From contig JACPRU010000063.1 in NCBI GenBank assembly GCA_016189835.1, forward strand, positions 1-64,000: 64,000 nt of DNA, given 5' to 3'. Below, one piece after another: positions 1 through 42,635 of this stretch. Source of the stretch: Deltaproteobacteria bacterium. Its GTDB lineage: Bacteria > Desulfobacterota > Binatia > JACPRU01. Position 1 is the stretch's first letter; each line of letters begins with the position of its first letter. The notes beneath the pieces were generated by a model. The model was not told where the DNA came from, made no database searches, and was given only the letters and a program-made list of their open reading frames with translations. Position numbers and translations under genes: made by a program.

Positions 1-94
1 AGGCTACTGGGACGCGACTTCGCTGTTTTGCACGAAGACATGCGAGGCCCCGGTACGCGGCCACCGTACGGTTGCGGCTGCGCCGCGCTGAACG
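1..94 (+). repeat. Dispersed structured repeat, copy A
   Basis: This is one of four related intergenic sequences in the window (others at 23477, 38122 and 42540). It starts with a CTACT block at 4-8 and ends with GCGGCTGCGCCGC at 74-86, which folds into a 5-bp stem with a 3-base loop. The loop differs from the other copies (TGC instead of TGT) while the stem is kept. A CTTCG...CGAAG stem sits near positions 18-37. The left edge of the window may truncate it. It lies about 95 bases before the histidine kinase start. Confidence 0.8.
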
Positions 95-188
95 GATCCT
101 GGTCCGGCGGCGTCGCTGCCGCGACCTCGCACGCCGTTCCGACCCCTTCTGTACAGACGCGTGCCGACTGTGGCAGCCTGCGCCGCCG

Positions 189-1418
189 ATGATCCGCAGC
201 GAGCAGAACGCGGCGGACTGGGCGCTGGCAGAAGCCCGAGCGCGATCCCGCGAATCCGCCGAGCAGCTGGCCGTCCGGCTCCGCTGGCTCTCGATCGTCG
301 CCATGCCGATCGTCGCCCGCTTGTCGGGCCAGCCGATCCGGAGCCCCTGGTTCGAGGGGCTGCTCGTGCTGGGGATCGCCTACAACCTCTCCATTTCGCG
401 AGCGCTGGGCCGCGGTTGGCGGGCCCCCTCGCTCAGTCTCGCCACCGCGGTCACGGACAGCTTGTTCCTGCTGATGTCCTGCTGGCTGTCGGGTGGGATT
501 CACAGCGCGCTCACCACCTACGACTATCTGGCGATGCTGAGCGTGTGCACGCGCCTGTCGTTCGTTCCCACGCTCGCCCTCGGTGCCCTGTACGCGGCCG
601 AGCTGTCGCTGCTCGCCTGGCTCGACGGCTCGTTGTGGCAGGGCGAGCTGCCGGTGAAGATCTGCTACGTGTTCCTCACGGCGATCTTCGTATTCCCGCT
701 CGCCGAGGAGGCGCGCGACCGCTTCGCCGAGGTGCTCGCCGGCCATCAAGCGCAGCGACGCCTGCTGCATCGCCTGCTGCGCACCGGCGAGGACGAGCGC
801 CGCCTGGTCGCGCGCGAGCTGCACGACCGCGGCGGCGGCGCGTTGTTTTCTCTGCTTCACGGCCTGCGCCGCCTGCGCGAGTTCGTGCACCCGCGCGACG
901 CAGGCGCGGAGGCCGAGGTCGACCGCCTGATCGCCGTCACCGAGGCCACCGTGAACGACCTGCGCGCGCTGCTCGCCGATCTGCGCCCGCGGCTGCTCGA
1001 CGACCTCGGCCTCGCCGAGGCGCTGCGCGAGCTGCTGTCGCGCGAGCGGGCGCTGTCGGGAATCCCGGTGTCGTTCGAGGTCGCCACCGACGTGTTGCCC
1101 GATTCCGAGTCGGCTCTGGCGCTGTACCGCGTGGCGCAGGAGGCGTTCACCAACATCCGGCGGCACGCCCAGGCGAACGAGGCGAACGTCAGGCTGGCGC
1201 GGGACGACGGTGGCTGGACGCTCGCCGTCGAGGACGACGGCAACGGGCTCAACGACGGGCGCGCCGGTCTCGGCCTGCGCACCATGCAGGAGCGGGTCGA
1301 GGCGCTCGGCGGTAGGCTGGAGATTCGTTCTGCGCCGGGGTCGGGGACCAAGATCTGGGCCTGGGTGCCCGAGAACCTTTCAGGAGAAGGGAATGGCGAT
1401 TCGAGTTTTTCACGCTGA
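189..1418 (+). CDS. Membrane sensor histidine kinase, NarL/DesK type
   Basis: Sensor kinase of 409 residues. About five or six hydrophobic segments fill residues 30-190. A HisKA_3 dimerisation helix follows with the phospho-acceptor His near residue 212 (RELHDRGGG), then a HATPase domain with an N box (EAFTNIRRH), G1 (EDDGNGL) and G2 (GLGLRTMQERV). The family usually has a Gln four residues after the Asp of the H box (HDxxxQ); here that place is Gly, so phosphatase activity may be weak (inference). An ATG at 189 gives a sensible N-terminus; reading further upstream would run into the repeat. The downstream response regulator overlaps by 26 bases, so the two form a two-component pair. No extracellular sensor domain is evident, so the signal may be sensed within the membrane. 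Confidence 0.88.
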   Translation: MIRSEQNAADWALAEARARSRESAEQLAVRLRWLSIVAMPIVARLSGQPIRSPWFEGLLVLGIAYNLSISRALGRGWRAPSLSLATAVTDSLFLLMSCWLSGGIHSALTTYDYLAMLSVCTRLSFVPTLALGALYAAELSLLAWLDGSLWQGELPVKICYVFLTAIFVFPLAEEARDRFAEVLAGHQAQRRLLHRLLRTGEDERRLVARELHDRGGGALFSLLHGLRRLREFVHPRDAGAEAEVDRLIAVTEATVNDLRALLADLRPRLLDDLGLAEALRELLSRERALSGIPVSFEVATDVLPDSESALALYRVAQEAFTNIRRHAQANEANVRLARDDGGWTLAVEDDGNGLNDGRAGLGLRTMQERVEALGGRLEIRSAPGSGTKIWAWVPENLSGEGNGDSSFSR

Positions 1419-2067
1419 CGACCATCAGACGTTCCGCGACGGCATGCGGCTCATCCTCGAGCGAGAGCCCGACATCGAGGTCGTCGGCAGCGCCGGGGAT
1501 ACCGCCGAGGCGTTGCGCCTGATCAACAAGCTGAAGCCGGACGTCGCCCTTCTCGACCTGAGCATGCCCGGCGGAGGGGTGCTGGCGATCGTGCGCCGCC
1601 TGCGCACCGAGCTGCCGTCCGTCAAGGTGCTGATCCTCACCATGTTCGACAGCCCGGCGTACGTTCACGAGGCCGTGACCGCCGGCGCGCTCGGCTATCT
1701 ATTGAAGGAGGCGCCGGGGGAGGAGGTGGTGCGCGCCGTGCGCAACGTCGCCGCCGGACAGGGCTACCTGATGGCCGCCGTCACGCTGCCGGTGCTGCGC
1801 AAGCTCGCCGACGACGCGCGGCTGGAGGGCAGGCGGCATCTGCTGTCGGACCGCGAGATCGAGATCCTCGAGCTGATCGCCGCCGGAGCGGCCAACAAGG
1901 AGATCGCCGAGCGCCTGGGCATCACCGAGGTGACGGTGAAGGCTCACCTGCGCAACATCTACGCCAAGATCGGCGCGCAGAACCGCGCTCACGCGGTCAC
2001 CATCGCCCTGCAGCAGAAGCTGATCGAGTCGGGAATGCCGGTGCTCGATCCCGTACTGAAGTCCTGA
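1393..2067 (+). CDS. Response regulator, NarL/LuxR family
   Basis: Transcription regulator of 224 residues and partner of the kinase just upstream. The receiver domain (about residues 1-120) shows the acidic pair (HADDHQ), the phospho-acceptor Asp (LLDLSMPGG), the Thr (LTMFDS) and the Lys (YLLKEA). A LuxR-type helix-turn-helix fills about residues 145-210 (LSDREIEILELIAAG, then NKEIAERLGITEVTVKAHL). The ATG at 1393 is preceded by a clear AGGAGAAGG ribosome site inside the end of the kinase gene, which suggests translational coupling. Targets are not visible. Confidence 0.93.
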   Translation: MAIRVFHADDHQTFRDGMRLILEREPDIEVVGSAGDTAEALRLINKLKPDVALLDLSMPGGGVLAIVRRLRTELPSVKVLILTMFDSPAYVHEAVTAGALGYLLKEAPGEEVVRAVRNVAAGQGYLMAAVTLPVLRKLADDARLEGRRHLLSDREIEILELIAAGAANKEIAERLGITEVTVKAHLRNIYAKIGAQNRAHAVTIALQQKLIESGMPVLDPVLKS

Positions 2068-2557
2068 AGATTCCGAGACGCTCCCGCAGCCGAAAGATTG
2101 ATGGGCTTACTCCGAACGAGGGCTTGTTGGGTCGCGGCGCGATCGGGGACAAATCCGCCGCTGCCAGGCTCCTCCCGTTCGATCAGATCAAATCTTCCGG
2201 AGGCGCGCCTTCTTCGTCGTTCGGCAGGGAAGGGGGGGGGCGCGGCGAATCGTGCGAGCGGGGTGCGCTTCCGGCGGGCAGCGCGGCGAACGGGCGATCG
2301 AATGGCGAGAAGATCGACGAGGGAGGCGGCAGGCCGGTGCGGCGCGTGGCGCGCGGGGCCGGAAACGACGGTTGGCGCCTTGACAGCGACGGTCCCGGAC
2401 GTGGTAGTGGCTCGCCGTGAGTTGAAAGAGCGGATCCGCCGCTGGATCGCTGCGCCTGACCGGGACCGGGCAGGCAGCCGCGCGGCAATACGATAAAGAG
2501 GCTGCCCGCCACCGAGGGGCCGCCGGGGACCCGAACATCGCAAGGAGGACACCTCGA
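2068..2557. other. Intergenic region, 490 bases, no gene recognised
   Basis: No reading frame here resembles a protein; the open frames are arginine- and alanine-rich high-GC noise and conflict with one another. A 7-bp stem (2467-2473 with 2502-2508) lies about 50 bases before the next gene, with the AT-richer AATACGATAAAG in its loop. A perfect TTGACA occurs at 2380 but lacks a convincing -10 box at the right distance. The region probably holds the terminator of the two-component pair and the promoter and leader of the next operon. Confidence 0.5.
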
Positions 2558-3625: not shown

Positions 3626-6032
3626 GACCAACGATAATCTCATCGTCCATCAGGAGAAGGCGGCGCTCTACCGCCTCGGCCAGTGGCTGATCGACCACCG
3701 CAAGATGGTGGCCGGCCTGACTTACGGCTTCACGGCGCTGATGCTCTTCTACACCGTGAAAATCGAGATGTTCACCGAGTTCGGCGACCTGCTGCCCTAC
3801 CGCCATCCGTTCGTGCAGGTGCACACCAAGTTCGCCAACCAGTTCGGCGGCGCGAACAACATCACGATCATGGTCGAGGTGAAGAACGGCACGATCTTCA
3901 ACGTCGACACCTTGAGCAAGATCTACAAGATGACGCAGGTCATCGACGTCCTGCCCGGCATCAACCACGACCAGATCGACTCGATCGGCCACCGCTCGAC
4001 GCGCTACCTGACGATGCAGGGCGGCTCGATCGCCACGCCGCCGGTCATGCGCCGCCCGCCGTCCTCCGACAGGGACGTGAACGAGATCCGCAACATCGTC
4101 CACTACTCGGAGAACATTCACGGCATCCTGGTCTCGCTCGACGACAAGGCCGCGCTGATCCGCGCGAACTTCTTCGAGGGGCGGGTCAACTACCGCCAGC
4201 TCTTCTACGACGTCAACGACAAGATCATCAAACCGTTCCAGGACGACAACACGGTCCTCTGGGTGGCCGGCGAGCCGCGCCTCTACGGGTGGATTTACCA
4301 CTACACGGGCGAGGTCTGGTACATCTTCGGCGGCTGCACGGCGTTCATGTGGATCCTGCTCTACCTGTACTTCCACGACTGGCGCGGCTCGCTGCGGCCG
4401 ACGCTGACCGGCATGATCTCGGCGATCTGGGGCCTCGGCGTGGTCCATATGATCGGCTTCCCGATGGACCCGCTGTCGCTGGTGATCCCGTTCTTCGTCA
4501 CCGCGCGGGCGGTCAGCCACTCGGTGCAGATGCACGAGCGCTACTACGAGGAGTACCACCGCCACAACTGGAACAAGGTGCAGGCGATCGTCGCGGCGTT
4601 CGCCGAGCTGTTCGAGCCGACGCTCTCGGGCATCGTCACCGACGCGCTCGGCATGCTGGTGATCGTGCTCGTCCCGGTGGTGATCCTGCAGCGCATCGCC
4701 ATCTCCGCCTCGATCTGGGTGGCGGCGATCGTGCTCTCCGAGCTGATCCTCAACCCGATCATCTACTACTACCTGAAGGCTCCGGAGAAGGAGAACGTGC
4801 TGGGCCGTGAGGAAGGGCCCTTCCAGCGCCTCATCACCTGGTGGAGCCACGTCGTGGTCGGCCCCAGGGCGCGCTGGGTCGCGCTCGGCTTCTGGGTGGG
4901 GGCGTTCCTGCTCGCCGCCACCCAGGTGCAGCACATCACCATCGGCGACGCGACGACCTCCACGCCGCTCCTCCAGCCCGACTCGCCGTACAACAACGCG
5001 CACATGCGCATCCAGAAGTTCTTCGGCGGCGTCGAGCCGCTGATCATCGTCATCGAGGGCAAGGAGAAGGGCGCTCTCAAGGATCCGCAGTCGATCGAGG
5101 CGATGGAGGCGTTCCAGCGCTACGTCGACAGCGATCCCGAGGTCGGCTACAGCTTCTCGCTCGCCGACATCGTGAAATCGATCAACATGGTGTTCTACGA
5201 CACCCAGCCGCGCTGGGGCGTGATCCCCGAGGAGATCGGCCGCATCGCCAACCTGTTCTTCTTCTACTTCGCCGGCTCGCCGCCGTCGGAGACCTCGAAG
5301 TACCTCGACCCCTCGTACACCAACGCCCACGTCACGTTCTTCTGCCGCAACCACCAGGGCGACACCGTGGCGCGAATCATCGAGCGCTGCCGCGAGTACG
5401 TGGCGAAGTTCCCGGCCGCCAAGATCGACTTCCGCCTCGCCGGCGGTCTGATCGGCGTCACCGCGGCCGCCAACGAGGAGATCCTCAAGAACGACATCTT
5501 GATGAACGTGCTCGGCTTCGGGACGATCTGGTTCGTCCTGCTGTTCACCTACCGGTCGTTCGTGGCCGGCATCATGATGCTGATCCCGCTGTTCCTCGCC
5601 AACGGCGTGATCAACGCCTACATCGGCTTCAACCACCTCGGCATCAACCTGCAGTCGCTCCCCGTGGTGACCGTGGGTGTCGGCTTCGGCATCGACTACG
5701 GCCTGTACATCGTCAGCCGCGCGATCGAGGAGTACCGCGACCACCTCGACTTCGAGAAGGCGGTGCAGCGCGGCATGCAGACCGCCGGCAAGGCGGTGAC
5801 CTTCACCGCGGTGTCGCTGTCGGTCGCCACGCTGGCCTGGGCGTTCTCCGACATCCGCTTCAATTCGGACATGGGACTGCTGCTGTTCCTGTGGATGATG
5901 ATCAGCTTCATGTCGACGATGTCGTTGCTGCCAGCGCTGATGGTGATCATGAGGCCGAAGTTCATGACCCTGCTCGTCAAGCCCGCACAGGCGGCGAAGG
6001 CCGAGCAGGCCGTGGCCACCGGAACATCTTGA
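3618..6032 (+). CDS. RND/MMPL-family permease, copy 1
   Basis: Inner-membrane transporter of 804 residues. The layout is typical of the half-size RND/MMPL class: one membrane helix near residues 30-50, a periplasmic domain (about 50-230), a block of about five helices (230-385), one helix (about 415-440), a second periplasmic domain (445-615), and a final helix block (620-790). The family signature GVGFGIDYGLYIVSR is near the last block. It is clearly paralogous to the permease at 10995: both share FGGAN, AGEPRLYGW, FRLAGGLIGV(T/L)AAANEE and AGKAVTFTA(V/L). It overlaps the YCF48 gene, so the two form one unit. The cargo is probably a lipid or other hydrophobic molecule (inference from the family). 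Confidence 0.9.
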   Translation: MAETNDNLIVHQEKAALYRLGQWLIDHRKMVAGLTYGFTALMLFYTVKIEMFTEFGDLLPYRHPFVQVHTKFANQFGGANNITIMVEVKNGTIFNVDTLSKIYKMTQVIDVLPGINHDQIDSIGHRSTRYLTMQGGSIATPPVMRRPPSSDRDVNEIRNIVHYSENIHGILVSLDDKAALIRANFFEGRVNYRQLFYDVNDKIIKPFQDDNTVLWVAGEPRLYGWIYHYTGEVWYIFGGCTAFMWILLYLYFHDWRGSLRPTLTGMISAIWGLGVVHMIGFPMDPLSLVIPFFVTARAVSHSVQMHERYYEEYHRHNWNKVQAIVAAFAELFEPTLSGIVTDALGMLVIVLVPVVILQRIAISASIWVAAIVLSELILNPIIYYYLKAPEKENVLGREEGPFQRLITWWSHVVVGPRARWVALGFWVGAFLLAATQVQHITIGDATTSTPLLQPDSPYNNAHMRIQKFFGGVEPLIIVIEGKEKGALKDPQSIEAMEAFQRYVDSDPEVGYSFSLADIVKSINMVFYDTQPRWGVIPEEIGRIANLFFFYFAGSPPSETSKYLDPSYTNAHVTFFCRNHQGDTVARIIERCREYVAKFPAAKIDFRLAGGLIGVTAAANEEILKNDILMNVLGFGTIWFVLLFTYRSFVAGIMMLIPLFLANGVINAYIGFNHLGINLQSLPVVTVGVGFGIDYGLYIVSRAIEEYRDHLDFEKAVQRGMQTAGKAVTFTAVSLSVATLAWAFSDIRFNSDMGLLLFLWMMISFMSTMSLLPALMVIMRPKFMTLLVKPAQAAKAEQAVATGTS

Positions 6033-6853: not shown

Positions 6854-6881
6854 GCCGCGGCGCCGTGGTGCGCCACCCTTC

Positions 6882-8131: not shown

Positions 8132-8136
8132 GCGCG

Positions 8137-10998: not shown

Positions 10999-13343
10999 GC
11001 GAAAATCGATCCGAGGGACGGCTCGTTTCGCTGGGGCGGACGTTGATCCGTCATCGCGTGGCGGCGCTCGCGGTCGTCGGCGTCGTCACCGCGTTCTTCG
11101 GCTACCACGCGCTGCGCCTGCAGCTCCTCAGCCGCTTCGACGAGCTGCTGCCGGCCACCCACCCCTTCGTCGCCGTTCATCGCCAGTTCGCCAAGACCTT
11201 CGGCGGGGCGAACACCGTGCTGCTGATGCTGCGAGTGCGCCAGGGCGAGATCTTCACGGTGAAGACGCTGACCAAGATCTGGGGGATGACGGAGGAGCTC
11301 GACAAGATCTACGGCGTCAACCACTACCAGATCGAGTCGCTCGCGCACCGCACGAACCGCACGCTGCGCGTCTCGGCCGGCGGGCTCATGGAGATGCAGC
11401 CGGTGATGATGTCGGCCCCGAAGCGGGAGGCGGACGTGGACACCGTGCGGCGCATCGTGCACGCCTCGCAGAATCTGTACGGCGTCCTGGTCTCGATCGA
11501 CAACCGCGCCGCGCTCATCCGCGCGAGCTTCATCGAGGGCATCATCGATCACCGCAAGCTGTTCGACGAGATCCAGAACCGCGTCGTCGAGCCCTTTTCC
11601 GACGAGGAAACCGAGATCCTGGTGGCGGGCGAGCCGCGGCTCTACGGCTGGGTCTACCAGTACGCCCATCAGGTGTACTGGATCCTCGCCGCCACCGCGG
11701 CGCTCGCCTGGATCCTGCTCTACCTCTACTTCCGCGACTGGAAGGGGGCGCTGCGGCCGACGATCTCGGGAGTGATCGCCGCGGTCTGGGGGCTCGGCTT
11801 CATCCACGTGATCGGTTTCTCGCTCGACCCGCTGACGCTGGTGATCCCCTTCTTCATCACCGCGCGCGCGGTCAGTCACTCGGCGCAGATGCACGAGCGC
11901 TACTACGAGGAATACCGCCTGTGCGGCTGGCGGCAGGAGGAGGCCATCATCCGCTCGTTCGCGGCGCTGTTCGTGCCGACGCTGTCCGGCATCCTCACCG
12001 ACGCGCTCGGCATCCTGGCGATCCTGGTGGTGCCGATCGTGCTGCTGCAGAAGCTCGCGCTCACCGCGTCGTTCTGGATCGCCGCGATCGTCGTCAGCGA
12101 GCTGTTCTTGAATCCGGTCGTCTACTCGTACCTGAGCCCCCCCGAGCGCGGGATGGTCGAGGCGCGCGAGCGCGGCGCGTTCCAGCGCTGGATCAACGCC
12201 GCGGCGGCGGCCGTGGTGTCGCCGACCGGGCGGCGCCTGAGCTTCGCCGTCTGGGGGCTGGTCATGATCGCGAGCCCGATCTTCTGGACCCGGCTGGTGG
12301 TCGGCGACTCCGAGGCCGTGACGCCGCTGCTGCGCCGCGACTCCGCCTACAACTTCGCGCACAAGGAGATCCAGGAGGAGTTCGGCGGCATCGAGCCGCT
12401 CATCATCGTCGTCGAGGCGCTGAAGCCCGGGTCGATGCGCACCCCCCACAACGTCAAGACGTTCGAGAAATTCCAGCGCTTCCTCGAGCGCGACCCCGAC
12501 GTCGGCGCGAGCTTCTCGTTCGTCGACGTGATCACCACGATGGGCTCCTTCGTCCACGAGGGGGATCCCAAATGGGCGGTGGTGCCGACCGAGGCGACTT
12601 CGGTGAGCTTCCTGTTCGGCGCCTTCTTTCAGGGCACCTCCTACGCCGAGACCGCGCGCTTCATGGACCCGAACTTCAGCAACACCGCGCTCTTCTTCTA
12701 CTGCAAGAACCACCGCGGGCCGACCATCCGCCGCATCATCGCCCGCGCGCAGCAGTTCATCGCCGAGAATCCCCTCGAGGACGCTCAGTTCCGCCTCGCC
12801 GGCGGCTTGATCGGCGTGCTCGCCGCGGCCAACGAGGAGATGGTGCGCAACGACGTCACGCTGAACGTCGTGGGTTACGTGACGATCTTCGTCGTCGTCT
12901 GTCTGACCTACGGGTCGTTCGTCGCGGGCCTGGTCATGATCGTCCCGCTGCTCGTCGCCAACGAGGTCGTGAACGCCTACATGGGGCTGCGCGGCATCGG
13001 CATCAACGTTCAGACGCTGCCGGTGATCACGGTCGGAGTCGGGTTCGGCATCGACTTCGCGTTCTACGTGGTGAGCCGCGTGCGCGAGAGTCTCGGGACG
13101 GTCGGCTCCGTGGCGGCGGCGACGGAGCATGCGCTGCGCACGGCGGGAAAGGCGGTGACGTTCACCGCGCTGACGATGATCGCCGGCATCCTGTTCTGGA
13201 ATTTCTCCGACATCCGCTTCAACGCGGAGATGGGGCTGCTGCTGGCGTTGTGGATGGCGGTGAGCTTTCTGGCGAGCATGACGCTGCTGCCGGCATTCCT
13301 GGTGGCGCTGTCGCCGAAGTTTCTCGGCCGCGGTCGCTCGTAA
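10995..13343 (+). CDS. RND/MMPL-family permease, copy 2
   Basis: Inner-membrane transporter of 782 residues with the same helix and domain layout as the permease at 3618. It keeps FGGANTVLLML, AGEPRLYGWVYQY, HSAQMHERYYEEYR and GVGFGIDFAFYVVSR. By eye roughly half the residues match the first copy, so the two are old paralogues rather than a recent duplication. It overlaps the upstream fusion gene by ATGA. Copy 1 has a YCF48 partner; this copy has the spermidine-synthase/TPR protein instead, which suggests different cargo or partner specificity (inference). Confidence 0.9.
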   Translation: MSENRSEGRLVSLGRTLIRHRVAALAVVGVVTAFFGYHALRLQLLSRFDELLPATHPFVAVHRQFAKTFGGANTVLLMLRVRQGEIFTVKTLTKIWGMTEELDKIYGVNHYQIESLAHRTNRTLRVSAGGLMEMQPVMMSAPKREADVDTVRRIVHASQNLYGVLVSIDNRAALIRASFIEGIIDHRKLFDEIQNRVVEPFSDEETEILVAGEPRLYGWVYQYAHQVYWILAATAALAWILLYLYFRDWKGALRPTISGVIAAVWGLGFIHVIGFSLDPLTLVIPFFITARAVSHSAQMHERYYEEYRLCGWRQEEAIIRSFAALFVPTLSGILTDALGILAILVVPIVLLQKLALTASFWIAAIVVSELFLNPVVYSYLSPPERGMVEARERGAFQRWINAAAAAVVSPTGRRLSFAVWGLVMIASPIFWTRLVVGDSEAVTPLLRRDSAYNFAHKEIQEEFGGIEPLIIVVEALKPGSMRTPHNVKTFEKFQRFLERDPDVGASFSFVDVITTMGSFVHEGDPKWAVVPTEATSVSFLFGAFFQGTSYAETARFMDPNFSNTALFFYCKNHRGPTIRRIIARAQQFIAENPLEDAQFRLAGGLIGVLAAANEEMVRNDVTLNVVGYVTIFVVVCLTYGSFVAGLVMIVPLLVANEVVNAYMGLRGIGINVQTLPVITVGVGFGIDFAFYVVSRVRESLGTVGSVAAATEHALRTAGKAVTFTALTMIAGILFWNFSDIRFNAEMGLLLALWMAVSFLASMTLLPAFLVALSPKFLGRGRS

Positions 13344-19021: not shown

Positions 19022-19022
19022 C

Positions 19023-23010: not shown

Positions 23011-23475
23011 ATGGCAGAAAAGGACCCGAGAATCGGCCGCACCACCCAGCCGGTCACGATGCGCGTCGAGTTCGGCAAGATCCGCGAGTTCGCCGCCGCC
23101 ATCAAGGACGACAACCCGATCTACTTCGACGAGGACTACGCGCGGCGGGAGGCGGGCGGAGTCATGCCGCCGCCGACGTTCACGATGACGCAGGCGTTCT
23201 GGGATTCGCACTCTAACCGGATCGAGCTCGGCATGGACCTGCGCCGGGTGCTGCACGGCGGTCAGGAGTTCGAGTACGTGCAGCCGGTGCACGCGGGCGA
23301 CACGCTGACCGCCCGCAGCTCGATCACCGACGTCTTCAAGAAGCCGGGCAAGCGCGGCGGCGAGATGACGTTCGCCGTGCTCGAGACCCAGTTCAGCAAC
23401 CAGCGCGGCGAGATCGTGCTCTACTCGCGCTCGACGATCATCGAGACCGCCAAGCCGGTCGAGAAGAAGGACTGA
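23011..23475 (+). CDS. FAS1-like/MaoC N-terminal dehydratase subunit
   Basis: Protein of 154 residues with the MaoC_dehydrat_N fold: VEFGKIREFAAAIKDDNP near residue 20, GGVMPPPTFTMTQ near 50, and LRRVLHGGQEFEYVQPVHAG near 80. It lacks the catalytic D-x4-H pair of active hydratases, as such subunits often do, and probably pairs with the MaoC protein 82 bases downstream into a heteromeric enoyl-CoA hydratase (as in HadAB or ChsH1-H2). It follows the acyl-CoA dehydrogenase by 26 bases, with a GATAGGAGCGAG ribosome site. Confidence 0.87.
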   Translation: MAEKDPRIGRTTQPVTMRVEFGKIREFAAAIKDDNPIYFDEDYARREAGGVMPPPTFTMTQAFWDSHSNRIELGMDLRRVLHGGQEFEYVQPVHAGDTLTARSSITDVFKKPGKRGGEMTFAVLETQFSNQRGEIVLYSRSTIIETAKPVEKKD

Positions 23476-23476: not shown

Positions 23477-23543
23477 CTACTAGGACAATGAGATACGAGG
23501 CCTCAGTACGCGACCACCGTTTGGTTGCGGCTGTGCCGCGCTA
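23477..23543 (+). repeat. Dispersed structured repeat, copy B (5' hairpin deleted)
   Basis: Same element as at 38122 but lacking about 25 bases that form the first hairpin. It keeps CTACTAGGAC, ATGAGATACGAGGCCTCAGTA, the GCGACCA...TGGTTGC stem and GCGGCTGTGCCGC. It sits between the two subunit genes of the dehydratase operon, and AAGGAGG follows it directly as the ribosome site of the next gene. Confidence 0.85.
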
Positions 23544-23556
23544 AGGAGGAACGCGC

Positions 23557-23985
23557 ATGGCGGAACGAAGGAAGCTCGACTACGCGGCAGTGCGGGAGGG
23601 CGACGAGCTGCCGAAGTTCGAGGTCAAGAACCTGACCCGCACCGACATCGTTCGATACGCGGGCGCGTCGGGAGACTTCAACCCGATCCACCACGATCAG
23701 ACGTTCGCGAGCGGCGCCGGCTACCCGACCGTGTTCGCGCACGGCATGCTGAACGCCGGCTTCGTGAGCAAGTGCCTGACCGACTACGTCGGCCGGCCGA
23801 ACCTGCGGAAGTTCTCGGTGAACTTCCGCACCCAGGTCTGGCCGGGCGACACGATCACCTGCGGCGGCAAGGTGACCCGCAAGTTCGAGGAGCGCGGCGA
23901 GCAGTGCATCGAGGGCGAGCTGTTCGCGGTCAATCAGAGGGGCGAGGTGGCGATCACCGGCTCGTTCGTGGCCGCGCTGTCCTGA
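23557..23985 (+). CDS. MaoC-family enoyl-CoA hydratase subunit
   Basis: Hot-dog-fold protein of 142 residues. It has the hydratase signature YAGASGDFNPIHHD with the catalytic Asp and His (D-x4-H) near residues 41-46, and GYPTVFAHGMLNAGFVSKCL near 60. It is the presumed catalytic partner of the FAS1-like subunit upstream and would hydrate the enoyl-CoA made by the acyl-CoA dehydrogenase. A strong AAGGAGG ribosome site just outside repeat copy B precedes the ATG. Confidence 0.9.
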   Translation: MAERRKLDYAAVREGDELPKFEVKNLTRTDIVRYAGASGDFNPIHHDQTFASGAGYPTVFAHGMLNAGFVSKCLTDYVGRPNLRKFSVNFRTQVWPGDTITCGGKVTRKFEERGEQCIEGELFAVNQRGEVAITGSFVAALS

Positions 23986-25500: not shown

Positions 25501-26469
25501 TCAGAACAGCGTGCCGATCAGCGTGCCGAGCACCGAGATCGGCGCCTGGTCCTCGATTCCCTGGGCGGCGCGGCTCACCCCGCGCAGCGCGCCTTCGGCC
25601 TGGTCGTAGAGCGCATCGTCGGCGACCAGGCGGCCGAGCGTGCCCTCGCCGCGCTTCACCCGATCGGAGAGCTCGGCGAAGTTCTGTGCGGTGACGTTCA
25701 ACCCGGCCACCGTCTCGCGCAGCTCGGCGTACATGCCGTCGTCGATCAACAGCTTGCCGAGCGTGCCCTCGCCGCCCGCGAGGCGGCCGGTCACCTTGCG
25801 GATGTCGCCGAACGATTCGCGCAGCGCGCTCAGAGTCGCCGTCGCCTCGTCGTAGAGCGTGGAATCGGCGAGCAGCTTGCCGAGCGTGCCCTGGCCGCTG
25901 TTCAGCTTGTCGGTGATGCCGCTCAGATTCTTCACCGTCTGCTGGAATCCCTGGCGGTTCTCGTCGAGCATCTCGCTCACCGTCTTCAGCAGGCGGTCCT
26001 GGTTCTCGTTCAGGGAGTCGGCCAGGCCGCGCAGGCTCCGCCCGACCTGGTCGAGCTCGTCGACCATCTGCGAGATGCCCGCCGCCGACTCGCCGCGGAT
26101 GGTCGCTTCGGGCGCCACCCGCGGGCGCGACGGCGATCCGCGATCGATGGCGACGAAGCGCGCGGCCGACAGCGCCTGGAAGTCGAGCCGGGCGACCGCG
26201 TCGTCGTGAAGCTCGACGCCGCGGCGGAGCTGCAAGGCGACGCGCACCTTGTCGGCCTCGAGGCGGACCTCGCGCACGCTGCCGGCCTTGACGCCAGCGA
26301 CGCGCACCTGGGCGCCGACGCTCAGCCCCTGGACGTCGCCGAACTCCGCCCACACGCGGTAGCCGCGGGCCAATAGCCCGCTGCCGACCGTCGTCTCGAT
26401 GAAGCCGACGAACAGCAGAATGCCCCCGAGGAAGAACAGACCGACCCGCTGCTCTCTGGAAAACGCCAT
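25501..26469 (-). CDS. mlaD: MCE-domain protein, MlaD-like
   Basis: Lipid-binding protein of 322 residues. A signal-anchor helix (VGLFFLGGILLFVGFIETTV) is near residue 10 and the MCE domain follows at about 36-115 (YRVWAEFGDVQGLSVGAQVR). The rest is helical and carries three spaced repeats of GTLGKLLADSTLYDEA type (also GTLGKLLIDDGMYAEL and GTLGRLVADDALYDQA), which probably form the tail of the hexameric tunnel. It is the substrate-binding part of the MlaEF ABC system encoded just upstream on the same strand, 18 bases away. Confidence 0.9.
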   Translation of the reverse strand: MAFSREQRVGLFFLGGILLFVGFIETTVGSGLLARGYRVWAEFGDVQGLSVGAQVRVAGVKAGSVREVRLEADKVRVALQLRRGVELHDDAVARLDFQALSAARFVAIDRGSPSRPRVAPEATIRGESAAGISQMVDELDQVGRSLRGLADSLNENQDRLLKTVSEMLDENRQGFQQTVKNLSGITDKLNSGQGTLGKLLADSTLYDEATATLSALRESFGDIRKVTGRLAGGEGTLGKLLIDDGMYAELRETVAGLNVTAQNFAELSDRVKRGEGTLGRLVADDALYDQAEGALRGVSRAAQGIEDQAPISVLGTLIGTLF

Positions 26470-35191: not shown

Positions 35192-35256
35192 CAAGGTCCA
35201 GACCCGCCATTAGCTTCCGCGACAGCAGGCATCGCCAGACGCCTGCGACGGTATCC

Positions 35257-36120: not shown

Positions 36121-36137
36121 GCCGGCGGGGCGCGGGC

Positions 36138-36590: not shown

Positions 36591-36619
36591 ACGGCGCGCG
36601 GCGCCGGGAGAACGAGCGA

Positions 36620-38092
36620 GTGCGTAGAAGGCAGTGGGCTGCAACCGCGGCGTGCGCGAGGCTGCTGGTCGCGGGTTGGCTCCTGTCGGATGCGGGAGCG
36701 GCCGGCGCGATCAGCCTGTTCGGCACCGAGGAGGAGAAGCCGGCGGCGGGGTTGATGCTGCCGGACTTCGTGGATCTCGCCCGACGCAGCTTTCCCGCGG
36801 TCGTGAACGTCTCGACCACCACCAACGGGGGCGCCGTGCGCGGCGGCCCTGCCCCAGGCGGCCCCGACGATCCGTTCGGCGAGTTCTGGGAGCCGTTCGA
36901 GCGCTTCTTCGGGCCCGGGCAGATGCCGCGGCGGCCGTTCAAGCAGAAGAGCCTGGGCTCGGGGTTCTTGATCGACAAGCGCGGATCGATTCTCACCAAC
37001 GACCACGTGATCGAGGACGCCGACGAGATCGTCGTCAAGCTCGCCGATGGCACCGAGCACCGCGCCAAGGTGCTCGGCCGCGACAAGAAGACCGACATCG
37101 CGCTGATTCGCATCGACCAGGCGCCGCCGGTGTCGCCGGTCGTGCTCGGCGATTCCGACCGGCTCGAGGTCGGCGAATGGGTGATGGCGATCGGCAATCC
37201 GTTCGGGCTCGAGAACACCGTGACGGCGGGGATCGTGAGCGCGAAGGGACGCCACATCGGGGCCGGGCCGTACGACAACTTCATCCAGACCGACGCGTCC
37301 ATCAACCCCGGCAACTCCGGCGGACCGCTCATCAACCTGCGCGGCGAGGTGGTCGGCATCAACAGCGCGATCTACAGCCGCAGCGGGGGCAACATCGGCA
37401 TCGGCTTCGCGAGCCCGATCAACATCGTCAAGGACCTGCTTCCCGACCTCGAGTCCAAGGGCCGCGTGACGCGCGGCTGGCTCGGCGTGCTGATCCAGAA
37501 GGTGACGCCGGAGATCGCCGAATCGCTCGGCCTGCGCGAAGCCGCCGGCGCGTTGGTCGCCGACGTGATGAAGGACGGGCCGGCCAAGCAGGGCGGGATC
37601 CAGGTCGGCGATGTGATCGTCGAGTTCGACGGCGCCGGGGTGAAGGACTCCACGGACCTGCCGCTGCTGGTGGCGCGCACGCCGGTCGGCAAGGTCGTGA
37701 AGGTGAAGGTGCTGCGCGGCAAGACCGAGAAGATCCTCGACGTCAAGGTACAGGAGCTGAAGGAGGGGGAGGTGCGGCTGGCGGGCGCCGAGAAAGAGAG
37801 CGACGACGTCGGCCTGACGGTGCAGAACCTGACGCCGCAGATCGCCGAGTCGCTCGGGCTCGACGCCGCCACTCGCGGCGTGGTGGTGTCGGCGGTGACG
37901 CCGGGGAGCGCGGCCGACGAGGCGCAGGTTCGCCGCGGCGACGTGATGCTCGAGGTCAACCGCAAGCCCATCAAGGACCCAGCGGCCTTCCGCTCGGCCC
38001 TGCGCGCGACCGAGAAGGGCAAGAGCGTGCTGCTGCTCGTCAAGCGCGGCGACAGCACGATCTTCCTCGCGCTCAAGAGAGAGAAGCCATAG
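36620..38092 (+). CDS. degP: Periplasmic serine protease, HtrA/DegP family
   Basis: Protein of 490 residues starting at a GTG, with a signal peptide (about 1-30). The trypsin-like domain (about 55-265) has the triad in TNDHVIED (His), KKTDIALI (Asp) and NPGNSGGPL (Ser). Two PDZ domains follow (about 275-370 and 390-485; GWLGVLIQKVTPEIAESLGL, then GLTVQNLTPQIAESLGL). The two-PDZ layout is that of DegP/DegQ. It degrades or refolds damaged periplasmic proteins. It is the last gene of the htpX group; repeat copy C follows. Confidence 0.94.
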   Translation: MRRRQWAATAACARLLVAGWLLSDAGAAGAISLFGTEEEKPAAGLMLPDFVDLARRSFPAVVNVSTTTNGGAVRGGPAPGGPDDPFGEFWEPFERFFGPGQMPRRPFKQKSLGSGFLIDKRGSILTNDHVIEDADEIVVKLADGTEHRAKVLGRDKKTDIALIRIDQAPPVSPVVLGDSDRLEVGEWVMAIGNPFGLENTVTAGIVSAKGRHIGAGPYDNFIQTDASINPGNSGGPLINLRGEVVGINSAIYSRSGGNIGIGFASPINIVKDLLPDLESKGRVTRGWLGVLIQKVTPEIAESLGLREAAGALVADVMKDGPAKQGGIQVGDVIVEFDGAGVKDSTDLPLLVARTPVGKVVKVKVLRGKTEKILDVKVQELKEGEVRLAGAEKESDDVGLTVQNLTPQIAESLGLDAATRGVVVSAVTPGSAADEAQVRRGDVMLEVNRKPIKDPAAFRSALRATEKGKSVLLLVKRGDSTIFLALKREKP

Positions 38093-38121
38093 CGCCGGGA
38101 GACGCCGCCCCCTGAGCTAGG

Positions 38122-38217
38122 CTACTAGGACGCGACTTCGCTGTCTTGCACGAAAAGATGAGATACGAGGCCTCAGTAGGCGACCACCGTTTGGTTGCGG
38201 CTGTGCCGCGCTGAGCG
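38122..38217 (+). repeat. Dispersed structured repeat, copy C (most complete)
   Basis: About 96 bases starting at CTACTAGGACGCG. Stems are TTCG...CGAA, the palindromic GAGGCCTC, GCGACCA...TGGTTGC (one G-T pair) and GCGGC-TGT-GCCGC. The last base is the first base of the GTG start codon of the PBP gene, leaving no room for a normal ribosome site. Confidence 0.87.
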
Positions 38218-40511
38218 TGACGCGAATCGCCCGGCGCTGGTCGATCGCGGCGGCGTCGCTCGTGCTCGCCGTCGCCGCCGTCGGCGGCGGCTGGGCGGTG
38301 GGCACGATCCGCGCCCTGGACCATCGGCTGGTGGAACGGTTCTCCGGGCGGCGCTGGGAGATCCCCTCCAAGATCTACTCGGACTCGTTCGTCGTCTACG
38401 TCGGCAGCGAGATCTCGGCGCTGAACCTGGTCGAGCGCCTCGACCGCCTCGACTATCGCCGGATCGACGGCGACGTGGCTCATGCCGGCGAGTACCGCTA
38501 TCAGCCGGGTCGGGGGCGCCTGGAGGTGTTCCTGCGCAGCTTCGACTACCCGAATCGACCGTTCCGGGGCTTTCCGGCGGCGGTCGATCTCGCCGACGGC
38601 CGGGTGAAGTCGATCTCCCGGCTCGACGGGGGAGCGCCGATCGATGCTCTGGAGCTCGATCCCGAGATTCTCGCCGGCATCTACGACCAGGCGGCGGAGG
38701 AACGGCGGATCGTCAAGCTCGCCGAGCTGCCGCGGATCCTCGTGCAGGCGGTGCTCGCCGCCGAGGATCGCCGCTTCTTCGAGCATCACGGCATCGACGT
38801 GCGCGGCGTGCTGCGCGCGATGGCGGCGAATCTGCGCCAGGGCCGGGTGGTGCAGGGGGGGAGCACGCTGACCCAGCAGCTCATCAAGAACTTCTTCCTC
38901 TCCGGCGCGCGGACCGTGAAGCGCAAGATCGTCGAGGCGGTGATGGCCGTGCTCGCCGAGATCCACTACAGCAAGATGGAGATCCTCGAGAGCTACTTGA
39001 ACGAGATCTATCTCGGACAGCGCGGCTCGCGCGGCATCTTCGGCGTCTGGGAAGGGGCGCGATTCTACTTCGGCAAGGAGCCGAAGGACCTGTCGGTCGG
39101 CGAGGCGGCGATGCTCGCCGGGCTGATCCGCTCGCCCGGGCATCTGTCGCCGGCGAAGAATCCCGGACCGGCGAAGCGGCGGCGCGACGAGGTGTTGCGC
39201 TTCCTGCTGCAGAGCGGCGACATCACCCCGTCCGAATACCAGGCGGCGGTGGCCGAGCCGCTGCCGGAGCGGCTCCCCGCTCCCGAGGCGACCGGCGCGC
39301 CCTACTTCGTCGACTACCTGCGCGGCGAGATCGAGGAGGAGTATCCGCTCAATACGCTGACCAGCGAGGGCTTCCGGATCTTCACGACGCTCGACCCGTC
39401 GCTGCAGCGCGACGCCGAGCGGGCGGTGACCCGCGGCCTCGCCGCGCTCGAGAAGCGCCGGGCCGCGCTCGGCCGGAAGGACGAGCCGCTCGAGGCGCTG
39501 CTGCTCGCGGTGCAGCCGCACACCGGCGAGATCAAGGTGATGGTCGGCGGCCGCTCCTACGCGGCCAGCCAGTTCAATCGCGTGACCGCTGCGGAGCGCC
39601 AGCCCGGTTCGATCTTCAAGCCGATCGTGTTCGCGGCGGCGTTCGAGACCGAGGAGCAGAGGGGGGAAGGGCGCTTTCTGCCCACCCGGCGGATCGCCGA
39701 TGCGCCGTTCACCTGGAGCTACGACGGGCGGACCTGGTCGCCGGAGAACTACAAGCGCGAATACCACGGCGAGGTGACCCTGCGGCAAACCCTCGAGATG
39801 TCGCTCAACTCGGCCACCGCACGGCTGGCGCAGGAGGTCGGCCTGGAGCGAATTCACGACGTCGCGACGCGGCTCGGCTTCCGCGAGAGTCTGCCGATGG
39901 TCCCCGCGCTGGTGCTCGGCGGCGCGGAGGTCACCGCCTACGAGGTGGCCGGCGCGTTCGCCGCCATCGCCAACCTGGGATTTCGCACCGAGATGAGCGC
40001 CATCCGCGGCGTGCTCGACGGCGAGGGAGCGCCGATCGTTCGTGACACGCTCGGCGCGTCGCAGGCCGTGTCGCCGCGCGTGGCGTTTCTGGTGACCCGC
40101 CTGATGCAGGGGGTGGTGGAGCACGGCACGGCCTCCGCGGTGCGCTCGGCCGGTCTCGCCTTCCCCATCGCCGGCAAGACCGGCACCACCAACGAGGGGC
40201 GCGACGCGTGGTTCGTCGGCTTCACGCCCGACCTGCTGGCGGTGGTGTGGGTGGGCTTCGACCGCGAGCAGGCGCTCGGCCTTTCTGGAGCCCAGGCGGC
40301 GCTTCCGATATGGATCGAGTTCATGAGGGACGCCTACGCCGGCAAGGAGTCGACGCCGTTCCTGGTGCCGCCCGGGATCGACAGCGCGTGGATCGATCCG
40401 GCCAGCGGCGGCCTGGCTACCGCCCGCTGTCCCGAGCGGTTCGAGGAGTCGTTCCTGGAGGGCGAGGCGCCGACGGCGCCCTGTTCGCTGCACCCCGAGG
40501 CACCGCCGTGA
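38217..40511 (+). CDS. mrcB: Bifunctional penicillin-binding protein 1b-type
   Basis: Class A PBP of 764 residues. One N-terminal helix (about 10-30) and a UB2H-like domain (about 35-135) point to the 1b branch. The GT51 glycosyltransferase domain (about 170-345) has EDRRFFEHHGIDVRG and GGSTLTQQLIKN. The transpeptidase domain has the active serine in QPGSIFKPIVF (SxxK), SLNSATA (SxN) and AGKTGTTNEGRDAWF (KTG). It polymerises and cross-links peptidoglycan. The GTG start abuts repeat copy C with no ribosome site. It overlaps tsaD by four bases (GTGA). Confidence 0.92.
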   Translation: MTRIARRWSIAAASLVLAVAAVGGGWAVGTIRALDHRLVERFSGRRWEIPSKIYSDSFVVYVGSEISALNLVERLDRLDYRRIDGDVAHAGEYRYQPGRGRLEVFLRSFDYPNRPFRGFPAAVDLADGRVKSISRLDGGAPIDALELDPEILAGIYDQAAEERRIVKLAELPRILVQAVLAAEDRRFFEHHGIDVRGVLRAMAANLRQGRVVQGGSTLTQQLIKNFFLSGARTVKRKIVEAVMAVLAEIHYSKMEILESYLNEIYLGQRGSRGIFGVWEGARFYFGKEPKDLSVGEAAMLAGLIRSPGHLSPAKNPGPAKRRRDEVLRFLLQSGDITPSEYQAAVAEPLPERLPAPEATGAPYFVDYLRGEIEEEYPLNTLTSEGFRIFTTLDPSLQRDAERAVTRGLAALEKRRAALGRKDEPLEALLLAVQPHTGEIKVMVGGRSYAASQFNRVTAAERQPGSIFKPIVFAAAFETEEQRGEGRFLPTRRIADAPFTWSYDGRTWSPENYKREYHGEVTLRQTLEMSLNSATARLAQEVGLERIHDVATRLGFRESLPMVPALVLGGAEVTAYEVAGAFAAIANLGFRTEMSAIRGVLDGEGAPIVRDTLGASQAVSPRVAFLVTRLMQGVVEHGTASAVRSAGLAFPIAGKTGTTNEGRDAWFVGFTPDLLAVVWVGFDREQALGLSGAQAALPIWIEFMRDAYAGKESTPFLVPPGIDSAWIDPASGGLATARCPERFEESFLEGEAPTAPCSLHPEAPP

Positions 40512-41527
40512 TCGTGCTCGGCATCGAGACCTCGTGCGACGATACCGCCGCGGCGGTGCTCGACGGCCCCCGGCTGCTGTCGAGCATCGTCTCGTCGCAG
40601 GATGCCGTGCACGGACCGTACGGCGGCATCGTGCCGGAATTGGCCTCGCGCCATCACCTGGTCAACGTTCTCGCCGTCCTGCACGCGGCGCTCGAGCAGG
40701 CGGGGATCGGCATCGACGCCGTCGAGGGCATCGCCGTCACCCGCGGTCCGGGCTTGATCGGATCGTTGCTGGTGGGGCTGTCCACGGCCAAGGGCATCGC
40801 CTTCCGCAGAGGGATTCCGATGGTCGGGGTGAACCACCTCGAGGGCCACCTGCTGGCGATCTTCCTCGAGCGCGAGATCGAGTTCCCGTACGTCGCCCTG
40901 CTCGTCTCCGGGGGCCACACGAGTCTCCACCTCGCCGAGGGACCGGGGCGGTACCGCCGCCTCGGCGCCACCCGCGACGACGCGGCGGGCGAGGCGTTCG
41001 ACAAGGCGGCCAAGATGCTCGGTCTCGGTTTCCCGGGAGGCCGCGTGATCGACCGCCTGGCGCGCGACGGCGACCGGACGGCGATCCGCTTTCCCCGGGC
41101 GGTGGTGCGCGGCGCGAAGTACGACTTCAGTTTCAGCGGACTGAAGACGGCGCTGCGCGAGTTCCTGCGGCGCGAGCACGGCTTCGCGGCGGGCGCGCAG
41201 GCGCCGAGTCTGTCCGCGTCGGCGCTCGGCGACATCGCCGCGAGCTTCCAGGAGGCGGTGGTCGACATGCTCGCGGTGCCGGCGCTGGCGGCGGCCGACG
41301 AGCTCGGCGTGCCGCGGATCGTAGTCTCGGGAGGCGTCTCGGCCAACTCCCGCCTGCGCGGCCGCCTGCATGACGACGCCCGGAGGCTCGGCATGGCGGC
41401 GTACGTTCCCTCGCCGAAGCTGTGCACCGACAACGCGGCGATGATCGCCTACGCCGGCGCGCGCCGTCTCGCGAATCGCGAGCGCGATCCGTTGACCTTG
41501 AACGCGGTGGCGAGCTTGCCGCTGTGA
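40508..41527 (+). CDS. tsaD: tRNA N6-threonylcarbamoyladenosine transferase TsaD
   Basis: Protein of 339 residues that places threonylcarbamoyl on A37 of ANN-reading tRNAs with TsaB and TsaE. It has the start GIETSCDDTAAAVLDG, the metal ligands in NHLEGHLLA, DDAAGEAFDKAAKMLGLGFP and the late SGGVSANSRLR and TDNAAMIAYAG. Length matches the family. GTG start, coupled to the PBP gene. Confidence 0.95.
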   Translation: MIVLGIETSCDDTAAAVLDGPRLLSSIVSSQDAVHGPYGGIVPELASRHHLVNVLAVLHAALEQAGIGIDAVEGIAVTRGPGLIGSLLVGLSTAKGIAFRRGIPMVGVNHLEGHLLAIFLEREIEFPYVALLVSGGHTSLHLAEGPGRYRRLGATRDDAAGEAFDKAAKMLGLGFPGGRVIDRLARDGDRTAIRFPRAVVRGAKYDFSFSGLKTALREFLRREHGFAAGAQAPSLSASALGDIAASFQEAVVDMLAVPALAAADELGVPRIVVSGGVSANSRLRGRLHDDARRLGMAAYVPSPKLCTDNAAMIAYAGARRLANRERDPLTLNAVASLPL

Positions 41528-41607
41528 TCGGCAGAAGCGATGCGATCCGAGACCCCGCTGGGCCCGGGCTTCGTGATGGCGGCCATGCCGCCGCTCTAGC
41601 CGCGTCC

Positions 41608-42444
41608 ATGGCCGCCGCGGAGTCGCTCCACCGCCGCACTCGAGAAGGGCTCGCCGCGCTCGGCGTGCGCCCGCGGCGCCGGCTCGGCCAGAGCTTTCTC
41701 GTCGATCCGCGGGTGGTGGCGCGGATCGTCGCGGAGGCGAACGTCGCCGGGCGCACCGTGGTCGAGATCGGACCGGGCCTGGGGGCGCTGTCGGAGGCAC
41801 TGGCCGAGGGTGCCGCCCGGCTCGACCTCGTGGAGATCGAGACGCGCCTGGCCGAGCGGCTCCGGGAGCAGTTTCGCGGGCGGCCGCAGGTGCGGGTCCT
41901 GGCCGCCGACGCGCTGCGCGTCGACTACGAGGCGCTGGTCGGAGCCGGACCGCGCGCGCTGGTGGTGGCGAATCTGCCGTACAGCGTCGGCAGCCAGATC
42001 CTGCTGCGGCTGATCGAGGCGCGGGCGGGTTTCGAGCGGCTCGTCGTGATGCTGCAGCGCGAGGTCGCCGAGCGCCTGGTCGCCCGTCCCGGCAGCAAGG
42101 CCTACGGGACGATCACGCTGTGGACCGCGCTCTACGGCCGAGCCGAGCTGCTGTTCCGCGTCTCGCCGGCGGCGTTCGTCCCGCGCCCCAAGATCGAGTC
42201 GGCGGTCGTCTCGATCGCGCTCGACGTCGAGCCGCGCGTGGCGCTCGCCGACGAGCAGCACTTTCGTACGGTGGTGCGCGCGGCGTTCGCGCAGCGGCGC
42301 AAGATGCTGCGCGCGGCGCTCGCCCGGCTCGCCACGCCCGGCGAGATCGAAGCGGCGGGCATCGACCCGCGCCGGCGCGGCGAGACGCTCTCGATAGAGG
42401 AGTTCGCGCGGCTGTCGAACGAGCTGCGCCGTGCGCGGCACTGA
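41608..42444 (+). CDS. rsmA: 16S rRNA dimethyladenosine transferase RsmA (KsgA)
   Basis: Methyltransferase of 278 residues that dimethylates A1518 and A1519 of 16S rRNA. Typical start RRRLGQSFLVDPRVVARIV, SAM motif EIGPGLGALSEAL, catalytic NLPYSVGSQILLRLI and the C-terminal FAQRRKMLRAAL. The ATG at 41608 fits the family N-terminus. It follows tsaD by 80 bases and is possibly in the same operon. Confidence 0.94.
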   Translation: MAAAESLHRRTREGLAALGVRPRRRLGQSFLVDPRVVARIVAEANVAGRTVVEIGPGLGALSEALAEGAARLDLVEIETRLAERLREQFRGRPQVRVLAADALRVDYEALVGAGPRALVVANLPYSVGSQILLRLIEARAGFERLVVMLQREVAERLVARPGSKAYGTITLWTALYGRAELLFRVSPAAFVPRPKIESAVVSIALDVEPRVALADEQHFRTVVRAAFAQRRKMLRAALARLATPGEIEAAGIDPRRRGETLSIEEFARLSNELRRARH

Positions 42445-42539
42445 GCCGCCGACGCTGATGTCGAGCCTTCATGCCGATCCGGGAGGCGCCGCGCCGCGGT
42501 CCGCCGAGGTCCCGGCCGGGGCGGCGGCCGCCGGCTGAT

Positions 42540-42635
42540 CTACTACGGCAGAATTTCGTCTCTTGGCACGACGAAATGAGATACGAGACCACAATAGGCG
42601 ACCGCCGTTTGGTTGCGGCTGTGCCGCGCTGAGCG
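42540..42635 (+). repeat. Dispersed structured repeat, copy D
   Basis: Divergent copy: the first hairpin is TTTCGTC...GACGAAA (7 bp, stronger than in copy C and with changed bases on both sides). The middle palindrome has decayed (GAGACCAC), while CCGTTTGGTTGCGG and GCGGCTGTGCCGC are intact. It ends 4 bases before the mutM ATG. The preceding 42445-42539 is a GC-rich spacer after rsmA with a possible CCGGCCG...CGGCCGCCGG hairpin. Confidence 0.85.

What the first reader, a model, noticed from the sequence alone, without database searches (positions are those of the whole stretch)
1..42635. Four-copy family of a structured repeat of about 95 bases, close to gene starts
Copies at 1-94, 23477-23543, 38122-38217 and 42540-42635 share a 3' core ending GCGACCACCGTTTGGTTGCGG and GCGGCTGTGCCGC. 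The hairpins persist while bases change: the first stem is CTTCG/CGAAG in A, TTCG/CGAA in C and TTTCGTC/GACGAAA in D; the CGACC/GGTTG stem keeps pairing in A through G-T pairs; the last loop is TGC or TGT. Structural conservation suggests function or mobility as RNA or single-stranded DNA. All four lie on the plus strand, three ending within 0-13 bases of a start codon.
Basis: partly seen in the sequence, partly recalled or inferred. Interest (0 to 1): 0.8.

Follow-up and report, generated by a model that had tools for sequence, protein, structure and literature searches.

The report
Short mobile repeat behind stop codons
This bacterium carries about 50 copies of a roughly 95-letter DNA repeat, almost always pointing the same way and sitting directly behind the TGA stop codon of a gene, which is best explained by a tiny parasitic DNA element that jumps into CTGA sequences; it is not shown to be a conserved RNA.

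Summary
They belong to a family of about 45 clear and about 8-10 diverged copies in the window's own 2.6 Mb draft genome. No full-length copy appeared in 147 relatives of the class, 296 genomes of the phylum, or GTDB r220.

The conserved-RNA interpretation is not supported: consensus fold energy is -2 kcal/mol, single folds are near shuffled, and covariation is close to control. An open reading frame in many copies is not coding-like either.

The strong signal is position. In 34 of 39 usable first copies the element starts directly behind the in-frame stop of the upstream gene, always TGA (74% in the genome), with C before it in 28 of 34 (40% expected). Left ends read CTGA(G/T)|CTAC, right ends GCGCTGAG. 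All 8 tandem pairs are heterotypic, so they look like sequential insertions into resident ends. A homologous gene junction in relatives is often short and lacks it.

Best reading: a non-autonomous, strand-specific mobile element targeting CTGA, probably of IS200/IS605/REP type. No cognate transposase was found. Its 3' end occurs exactly in genomes of about ten phyla, attached to other bodies.

The parts
4..92 (+). Copy 1 (family A, 5-nt internal deletion); left end CTAC at 4, right end CTGAA 88-92; left flank lost at contig end
23472..23476 (+). CTGAG target of copy 2; TGA 23473-23475 is the stop codon of a MaoC-like gene (23011-23475)
23477..23545 (+). Copy 2 (family A, large internal deletion in the left half), right end CTAAG, between two MaoC-like genes; next ATG at 23557
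38112..38116 (+). CTGAG to the left of copy 3, 19 bases behind the TAG (38090-38092) that ends the DegP-like gene
38122..38215 (+). Copy 3 (family A, complete), right end CTGAG 38211-38215; GTG start of a penicillin-binding protein gene at 38217
42535..42539 (+). CTGAT target of copy 4; here an intergenic TGA, not a stop codon (rsmA stop at 42442-42444)
42540..42633 (+). Copy 4 (family B, complete), right end CTGAG 42629-42633; mutM ATG at 42640
42552..42576 (+). Left hairpin of family B: TTTCGTC pairing with GACGAAA within this stretch
   Evidence: sequence
42607..42633 (+). Right end GTTTGGTTGCGGCTGTGCCGCGCTGAG with hairpin GCGGC-TGT-GCCGC; same 27-mer pattern found in about ten phyla

Best explanation
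The repeat is a non-autonomous mobile DNA element of about 94 nt (CTAC...GCCGCGCTGAG) that inserts strand-specifically directly 3' of the sequence CTGA(G/T). Because CTGA in short GC-rich intergenic gaps is mostly the end of a gene (xxC TGA), copies sit behind stop codons, run with the upstream gene and leave the next gene's Shine-Dalgarno and start in place. The right end itself finishes in CTGAG, so a resident copy offers a new target and tandem rows of different subfamilies build up. The likely mechanism, inferred and not shown, is single-strand transposition by an IS200/IS605 or REP-type (HUH/Y1) transposase acting in trans on the end hairpins: insertion 3' of a fixed short sequence kept in the left flank, a similar sequence at the right end, no terminal inverted repeats. 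Shown: family, target, polarity, tandem logic, insertion into a junction that is short in several relatives. Inferred: the transposase, the DNA strand intermediate, absence of benefit to the host.
For: About 45 clear plus 8-10 diverged copies in the own genome. In 41 of 43 copies with a confident upstream frame the upstream gene is co-directional; in 34 of 39 first copies its in-frame stop is the TGA at the left end, TGA every time (background 168 of 226 stops, 74%), and C precedes it in 28 of 34 (background 67 of 168, 40%). Copies not at a stop codon (38122, 42540, C57:13643, C41:2956) still have TGA at the boundary, so TGA rather than stop function is the target. Ends are uniform: CTGA(G/T)CTAC left, GCGCTGAG right. 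Eight tandem pairs, all head to tail, are 59-81% identical within the pair, while one member often has a 93-97% match elsewhere: A next to B, B next to A, C next to A, so separate insertions. Family B copies at eight loci are 89-97% identical, pointing to recent activity. The MaoC-MaoC junction is 81 nt here but 2, -4, 9, 9, 9, 7 and similar in many relatives, others 31-147. Hairpins in left and right terminal thirds exceed shuffled ones, the middle does not. Downstream genes (moaA, panE, rplY, sufB, phoU, uvrA, cobT, sucA, sucB, mutM...; names from my reading of the proteins) form no regulon.
Against: No autonomous copy and no matching transposase was found. The only Y1 transposase in the 75% complete genome (C14:16060) is flanked by another repeat, AAAAGGGGTCGGGAGTC. 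No Y1 gene checked in 11 other genomes that carry the right end is flanked by it. TnpB, reverse transcriptase and IS110 were not found. CTGA at both ends could also be read as a 4-bp target duplication, which would suit a DDE enzyme. End hairpins are weak in old copies. No close relative exists to show a true empty site base by base.
Confidence: 0.6

Rival explanations
1. MITE of a DDE-type insertion sequence: CTGA is a 4-bp target duplication and the one-way orientation comes from selection, since reverse insertions disturb the operon.
For: CTGA stands at both ends; no Y1 enzyme with these ends was found.
Against: The two ends are not inverted repeats of each other (CTACTAGG against GCCGCGCTGAG); the target is a fixed non-palindromic CTGA in one orientation; right ends read GCGCTGAG even where flanks differ, and tandem copies share one CTGA between two elements.
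Confidence: 0.2
2. A cis-acting RNA element that the host uses between co-transcribed genes, for example for mRNA processing, stability or translational coupling, spread because it is useful.
For: Always co-directional, between stop codon and Shine-Dalgarno, often inside operons (sucA-sucB, MaoC pair); conserved central core CACGAAGA-ATGAGATACGAG.
Against: No covarying structure; unrelated downstream genes; confined to one genome among relatives that keep the operons; many copies carry deletions.
Confidence: 0.1
3. A coding element: the frame ending in the terminal TGA reads LLGRDFAVLHEDMRYEASVRDHRLVAAVPR in most copies and is conserved as a peptide.
For: Frame open in about 30 copies; families A and B align without gaps as peptides.
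Against: Differences fall 23-33% / 34-36% / 33-43% on codon positions 1/2/3, and position 3 of several codons is invariant; indels of 1, 2, 5 and 7 nt occur; no start codon at the left end; no Pfam match; no such protein in the class.
Confidence: 0.04
4. Retro-element (SINE-like) or bridge-RNA (IS110) element sharing a common 3' tail with other repeats.
For: The same 3' end occurs on different bodies in about ten phyla, as SINE tails do.
Against: No reverse transcriptase and no IS110 transposase found in the genome, though 25% of it is missing.
Confidence: 0.06

Closest known systems
IS200/IS605 family insertion sequences (IS608, ISDra2) and their non-autonomous derivatives such as palindrome-associated transposable elements
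   Same: Insertion 3' of a fixed short sequence kept in the left flank (TTAC for IS608, TTGAT for ISDra2; PMC5934647), here CTGA(G/T); a related sequence ends the right end; hairpins near both ends; no inverted terminal repeats; strand-specific.
   Different: No tnpA/tnpB with these ends found; only about 94 nt long; guide pairing could not be tested; target is in effect the stop codon.
REP sequences mobilised by RAYT/TnpA-REP
   Same: High-copy, short, extragenic, mostly downstream of genes (PMC3733652); TnpA-REP cuts at C|T next to the hairpin (PMC8266576), and both ends here contain C|TGA.
   Different: Lacks a GTAG or CGTC foot 5' of the hairpin; fixed orientation and head-to-tail tandems instead of inverted dimers; the genome's own Y1 gene is flanked by another repeat.
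Enterobacterial RU-1/RU-2/RU-3 small mobile sequences and Rickettsia palindromic elements
   Same: About 100-170 bp interspersed elements that can be read as an open frame (PMC2759123).
   Different: [quoted passage not shown] this one stands behind the stop codon and shows no coding pattern.

Membership tests
IS200/IS605-derived non-autonomous element | Insertion 3' of a fixed tetra-/pentanucleotide in one orientation | tested here: met
   CTGA(G/T) at nearly all left ends, C 28/34 and TGA 34/34 at stop-codon sites
IS200/IS605-derived non-autonomous element | Right end terminates in a cleavage sequence similar to the target | tested here: met
   GCGCTGAG right end
IS200/IS605-derived non-autonomous element | Subterminal hairpins at both ends, no terminal inverted repeats | tested here: inconclusive
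   Longest stem 4.60 against 3.73 shuffled (left), 4.67 against 3.80 (right) over all copies; small excess in diverged copies
IS200/IS605-derived non-autonomous element | Cognate HUH Y1 transposase flanked by the same ends | tested here: not met
   Only Y1 gene at C14:16060 flanked by a different repeat; genome 75% complete; no other Y1 loci checked are flanked by the right end. A non-autonomous element may lack it in the genome, so this lowers membership, not the mechanism.
IS200/IS605-derived non-autonomous element | No target duplication; excision restores the site | not testable with these tools
   No orthologous empty site close enough; relatives' junctions only show a short gap
REP/RAYT | GTAG or CGTC tetranucleotide at the foot of the hairpin | tested here: not met
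   Right end GGTTGCGGC-TGT-GCCGCGCTGAG; left end begins CTAC (GTAG only on the complementary strand and 3' of the hairpin)
Structured RNA family (Rfam) | Match to a curated family | tested here: not met
   No gathering-level match in the window; nothing on the element at E<=10
Structured RNA family (Rfam) | Conserved fold with compensatory changes | tested here: not met
DDE MITE | Terminal inverted repeats | tested here: not met
   Ends differ: CTACTAGGAC / CTACTACGGC against GTGCCGCGCTGAG
Coding sequence | Third-position excess and frame-preserving indels | tested here: not met

The most novel reading that the evidence does not exclude
The shared right end GTTTGGTTGCGGCTNTGCCGCGCTRRG marks an undescribed, cross-phylum superfamily of miniature mobile elements with interchangeable bodies, moved by a still unknown enzyme; in this lineage it has specialised on CTGA and so colonises stop codons in a way that spares both neighbouring genes.
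Probability: 0.3. Interest if true: 0.7.

Novelty: new variant of a known kind. Interest (0 to 1): 0.5.

Why it matters
An element whose target is in effect the stop codon shows how a parasite can fill operons without breaking genes or ribosome-binding sites, and it explains polarity and gene proximity that would otherwise suggest an RNA function. The identical 27-base right end in about ten phyla, on different bodies, points to a widespread mobiliser that has not been identified and that could now be looked for.

Tried and rejected
Conserved RNA: rejected. Rfam: nothing. Small protein: looked attractive because families A and B align without gaps as peptides, rejected on codon-position pattern and frameshifting indels. 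Own Y1/RAYT gene as direct mobiliser: its flanks carry a different inverted repeat. Y1 genes in 11 other genomes with the right end: none flanked by it. Recurrent gene next to the right end in other phyla: none resembling a transposase. TnpB, RT, IS110: not found in the draft genome. Viral contigs: one match for the right end, none for the core. Literature: searching the sequence words found no description of these repeats; a second search gave related classes only. A hidden mass of decayed copies behind other stop codons was looked for and not found in those stretches. Integron attC sites were considered: the right end lacks GTTRRRY and there is no cassette array.
Full report
Observation. The four copies exist at the stated coordinates and are far beyond chance. 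A blastn search of the window's own assembly (G000, 2.61 Mb, 87 contigs, 75% complete) with copy 3 gives 44-46 convincing matches; a sequence-only profile built from 36 copies (A1, R1) gives about 45 strong and about 8-10 diverged copies (read). No full-length match was found in 147 other genomes of the class (peptide search), 296 others of the phylum (R1 search; stricter filters that can lose weak matches), or, for the core pattern CACGANGANATGAGATACGAG, in GTDB r220 or viral contigs (near-own records are left out there). G000 is the only genome of its family held.

Anatomy. Strand-normalised copies read CTGA(G/T)|CTAC(T)A.GG.c...TTCG...CACGAAGA.ATGAGATACGAG...GCGACC.CCGTTTGGTTGCGGCTGTGCCGCGCTGAG. 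Subfamilies: A (CTACTAGGACGCGACTTCGCTG..., about 30 copies, copies 1-3 of the window), B (CTACTACGGCAGAATTTCGTC..., 8 copies 89-97% identical, copy 4 of the window), C (GATGAAAATG/GATGAGAATG types at C83:29273, C77:10052, C77:105324) and older ones with GGCAGGA before the left hairpin. Copies with 5-, 7- and roughly 25-nt internal deletions and left-end or right-end fragments exist.

Structure is not what is conserved. RNAalifold yields -2.05 kcal/mol. Six representative copies fold with z from 0 to -1.6. The first stem of family B (TTTCGTC/GACGAAA) uses partners 3 columns away from those of family A (CTTCG/CGAAG) in a gapless alignment; this is replacement of a hairpin, not compensation. Terminal regions do hold longer stems than shuffled sequence (4.60 against 3.73, sd 0.13; 4.67 against 3.80, sd 0.13), the middle does not (3.35 against 3.41); rows are related, and among 19 diverged copies the excess is small.

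Coding is not what is conserved either. Families A and B read LLGRDFAVLHEDMRYEASVRDHRLVAAVPR* and LLRQNFVSWHDEMRYETTIGDRRLVAAVPR* without gaps. But differences between gapless pairs are spread 0.23-0.33, 0.34-0.36, 0.33-0.43 over codon positions 1, 2, 3, several third positions are invariant, indels are not multiples of three, subfamily C has an in-frame TGA, there is no start codon at the left end and no protein match.

Position is what is conserved. A codon-usage frame test on both sides of each copy gives a confident upstream frame in 43 copies: 41 co-directional, 2 opposite (one of these is a doubtful right-end fragment). Leaving out second members of tandem pairs, 34 of 39 have the in-frame stop exactly at the left boundary. 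All 34 stops are TGA; in 226 other confident stops of the same genome 168 are TGA (74%), 45 TAG, 13 TAA, so 34 of 34 has a chance of about 4e-5. The base before TGA is C in 28 of 34 against 67 of 168. The exceptions are informative: at 38122, at 42540, at C57:13643 and at C41:2956 the boundary has TGA although that TGA is not the stop of the gene. The target is therefore the sequence CTGA, and stop codons are where it is found in short intergenic gaps. These counts were made by me by reading the and tables.

Insertion. Homologues of the MaoC-MaoC junction around copy 2 were fetched from 21 relatives. The junction is 81 nt here; in relatives it is 2, -4, 9, 9, 9, -10, -10, -10, -16 and 7 nt, in others 31-147, and one has a gene between (459 nt). 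The two closest homologues (57-70% identity) have 2 and -4. None carries the repeat. This is a comparison of homologous junctions, not a base-exact empty site. The eight tandem pairs are all head-to-tail with a shared CTGA (or its variants CTAG, CCGAG), and the members are 59-81% identical to each other although one member often has a 93-97% match elsewhere in the genome; tandem duplication would give the opposite. They are what insertion into the CTGAG of a resident right end would produce. Seventeen downstream genes were read; they encode unrelated functions, with starts 0-31 nt behind the element (gene names are my reading of the sequences, not a database search). In sucA-sucB a tandem pair sits between the two genes.

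Mechanism. Insertion directly 3' of a fixed short sequence that stays in the left flank, in one orientation, with a related sequence closing the right end and no inverted terminal repeats, is the logic of IS608 (TTAC) and ISDra2 (TTGAT) (PMC5934647). TnpA-REP cuts at C|T beside its hairpin (PMC8266576), and both ends here offer C|TGA. That is why a HUH Y1 transposase acting in trans is the favoured mechanism. It is an inference: the single Y1 gene of the draft genome (C14:16060; 236-aa ORF, Pfam Y1_Tnp) is flanked by another inverted repeat, AAAAGGGGTCGGGAGTCTTTT, as described for RAYT genes with long terminal inverted repeats (PMC3733652), and no Y1 locus checked in 11 other genomes carrying the right end is flanked by it. 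A quarter of the genome is missing, so a mobiliser may be unsampled or lost. Confidence that this is a site- and strand-specific mobile DNA repeat is about 0.85; that the enzyme is of the Y1 single-strand type about 0.45; the 0.6 given stands for the whole statement with the mechanism marked as likely.

A wider connection. The right end is not private. The exact pattern GTTTGGTTGCGGCTNTGCCGCGCTRRG lies in 56 contigs of GTDB r220 from Hydrogenedentota, Planctomycetota, Verrucomicrobia, Lentisphaeria, Chloroflexi, Zixibacteria, Rokubacteria, Poribacteria, Sumerlaeota and Desulfobacterota (phylum names from record titles), and shorter matches lie in three genomes of one other family of the same class. 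In several of these genomes the sequence to its left is multi-copy and different from genome to genome, while the sequence to its right diverges at once. A pattern this specific on unrelated bodies suggests a common right-end signal. The Zixibacteria copies also begin CTG(T/A)ACTAC, close to CTGA(G/T)CTAC here, but that similarity is short and was not tested.

Verdict. A real, lineage-specific, strand- and site-specific mobile repeat, new variant of a known kind. The RNA reading is not supported. What lifts it above routine is the near-exclusive use of CTGA at stop codons and the cross-phylum right end.

Noticed in passing
window 56700-56799; also C14:15747-17180, C1:40606, C3:22059, C22:48511, C46:15236: A second repeat family, AAAAGGGGTCGGGAGTCTTTT, mostly as inverted pairs, 16 sites in the stretches read; it flanks the genome's only Y1 (RAYT-like) transposase gene, so this is probably the RAYT's own repeat.
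   Followed up: partly
L112-L167, e.g. L140, L142, L121: The 27-mer GTTTGGTTGCGGCTNTGCCGCGCTRRG is the sharp right end of multi-copy repeats with different bodies in about ten phyla.
   Followed up: partly
L050, L054, L058, L061, L113, L156: In one family of the same class the shared hairpin lies beside CACGAAGGACACGAAG-type microrepeats that form large palindromes; related microrepeats surround it in other phyla.
   Followed up: no
window 4073-5962 and 11432-13321: Two stretches 7359 bases apart with 70-73% identity, a duplicated gene region.
   Followed up: no
window 25600-25898: Three 53-base direct repeats at 123-base spacing, perhaps inside a repeat protein gene.
   Followed up: no
C29:10708 (L037) and C39:5150 (L110): Two contigs share the same upstream gene end (TGCTCGGCCTGCCGCGGTCGTACTGAG), each followed by a different copy or fragment of the element: paralogues or strain variation in the draft genome.
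   Followed up: no
C11:8389-8568 and C11:11353-11449: Copies of the element precede sucA, and a tandem pair lies between sucA and sucB.
   Followed up: partly
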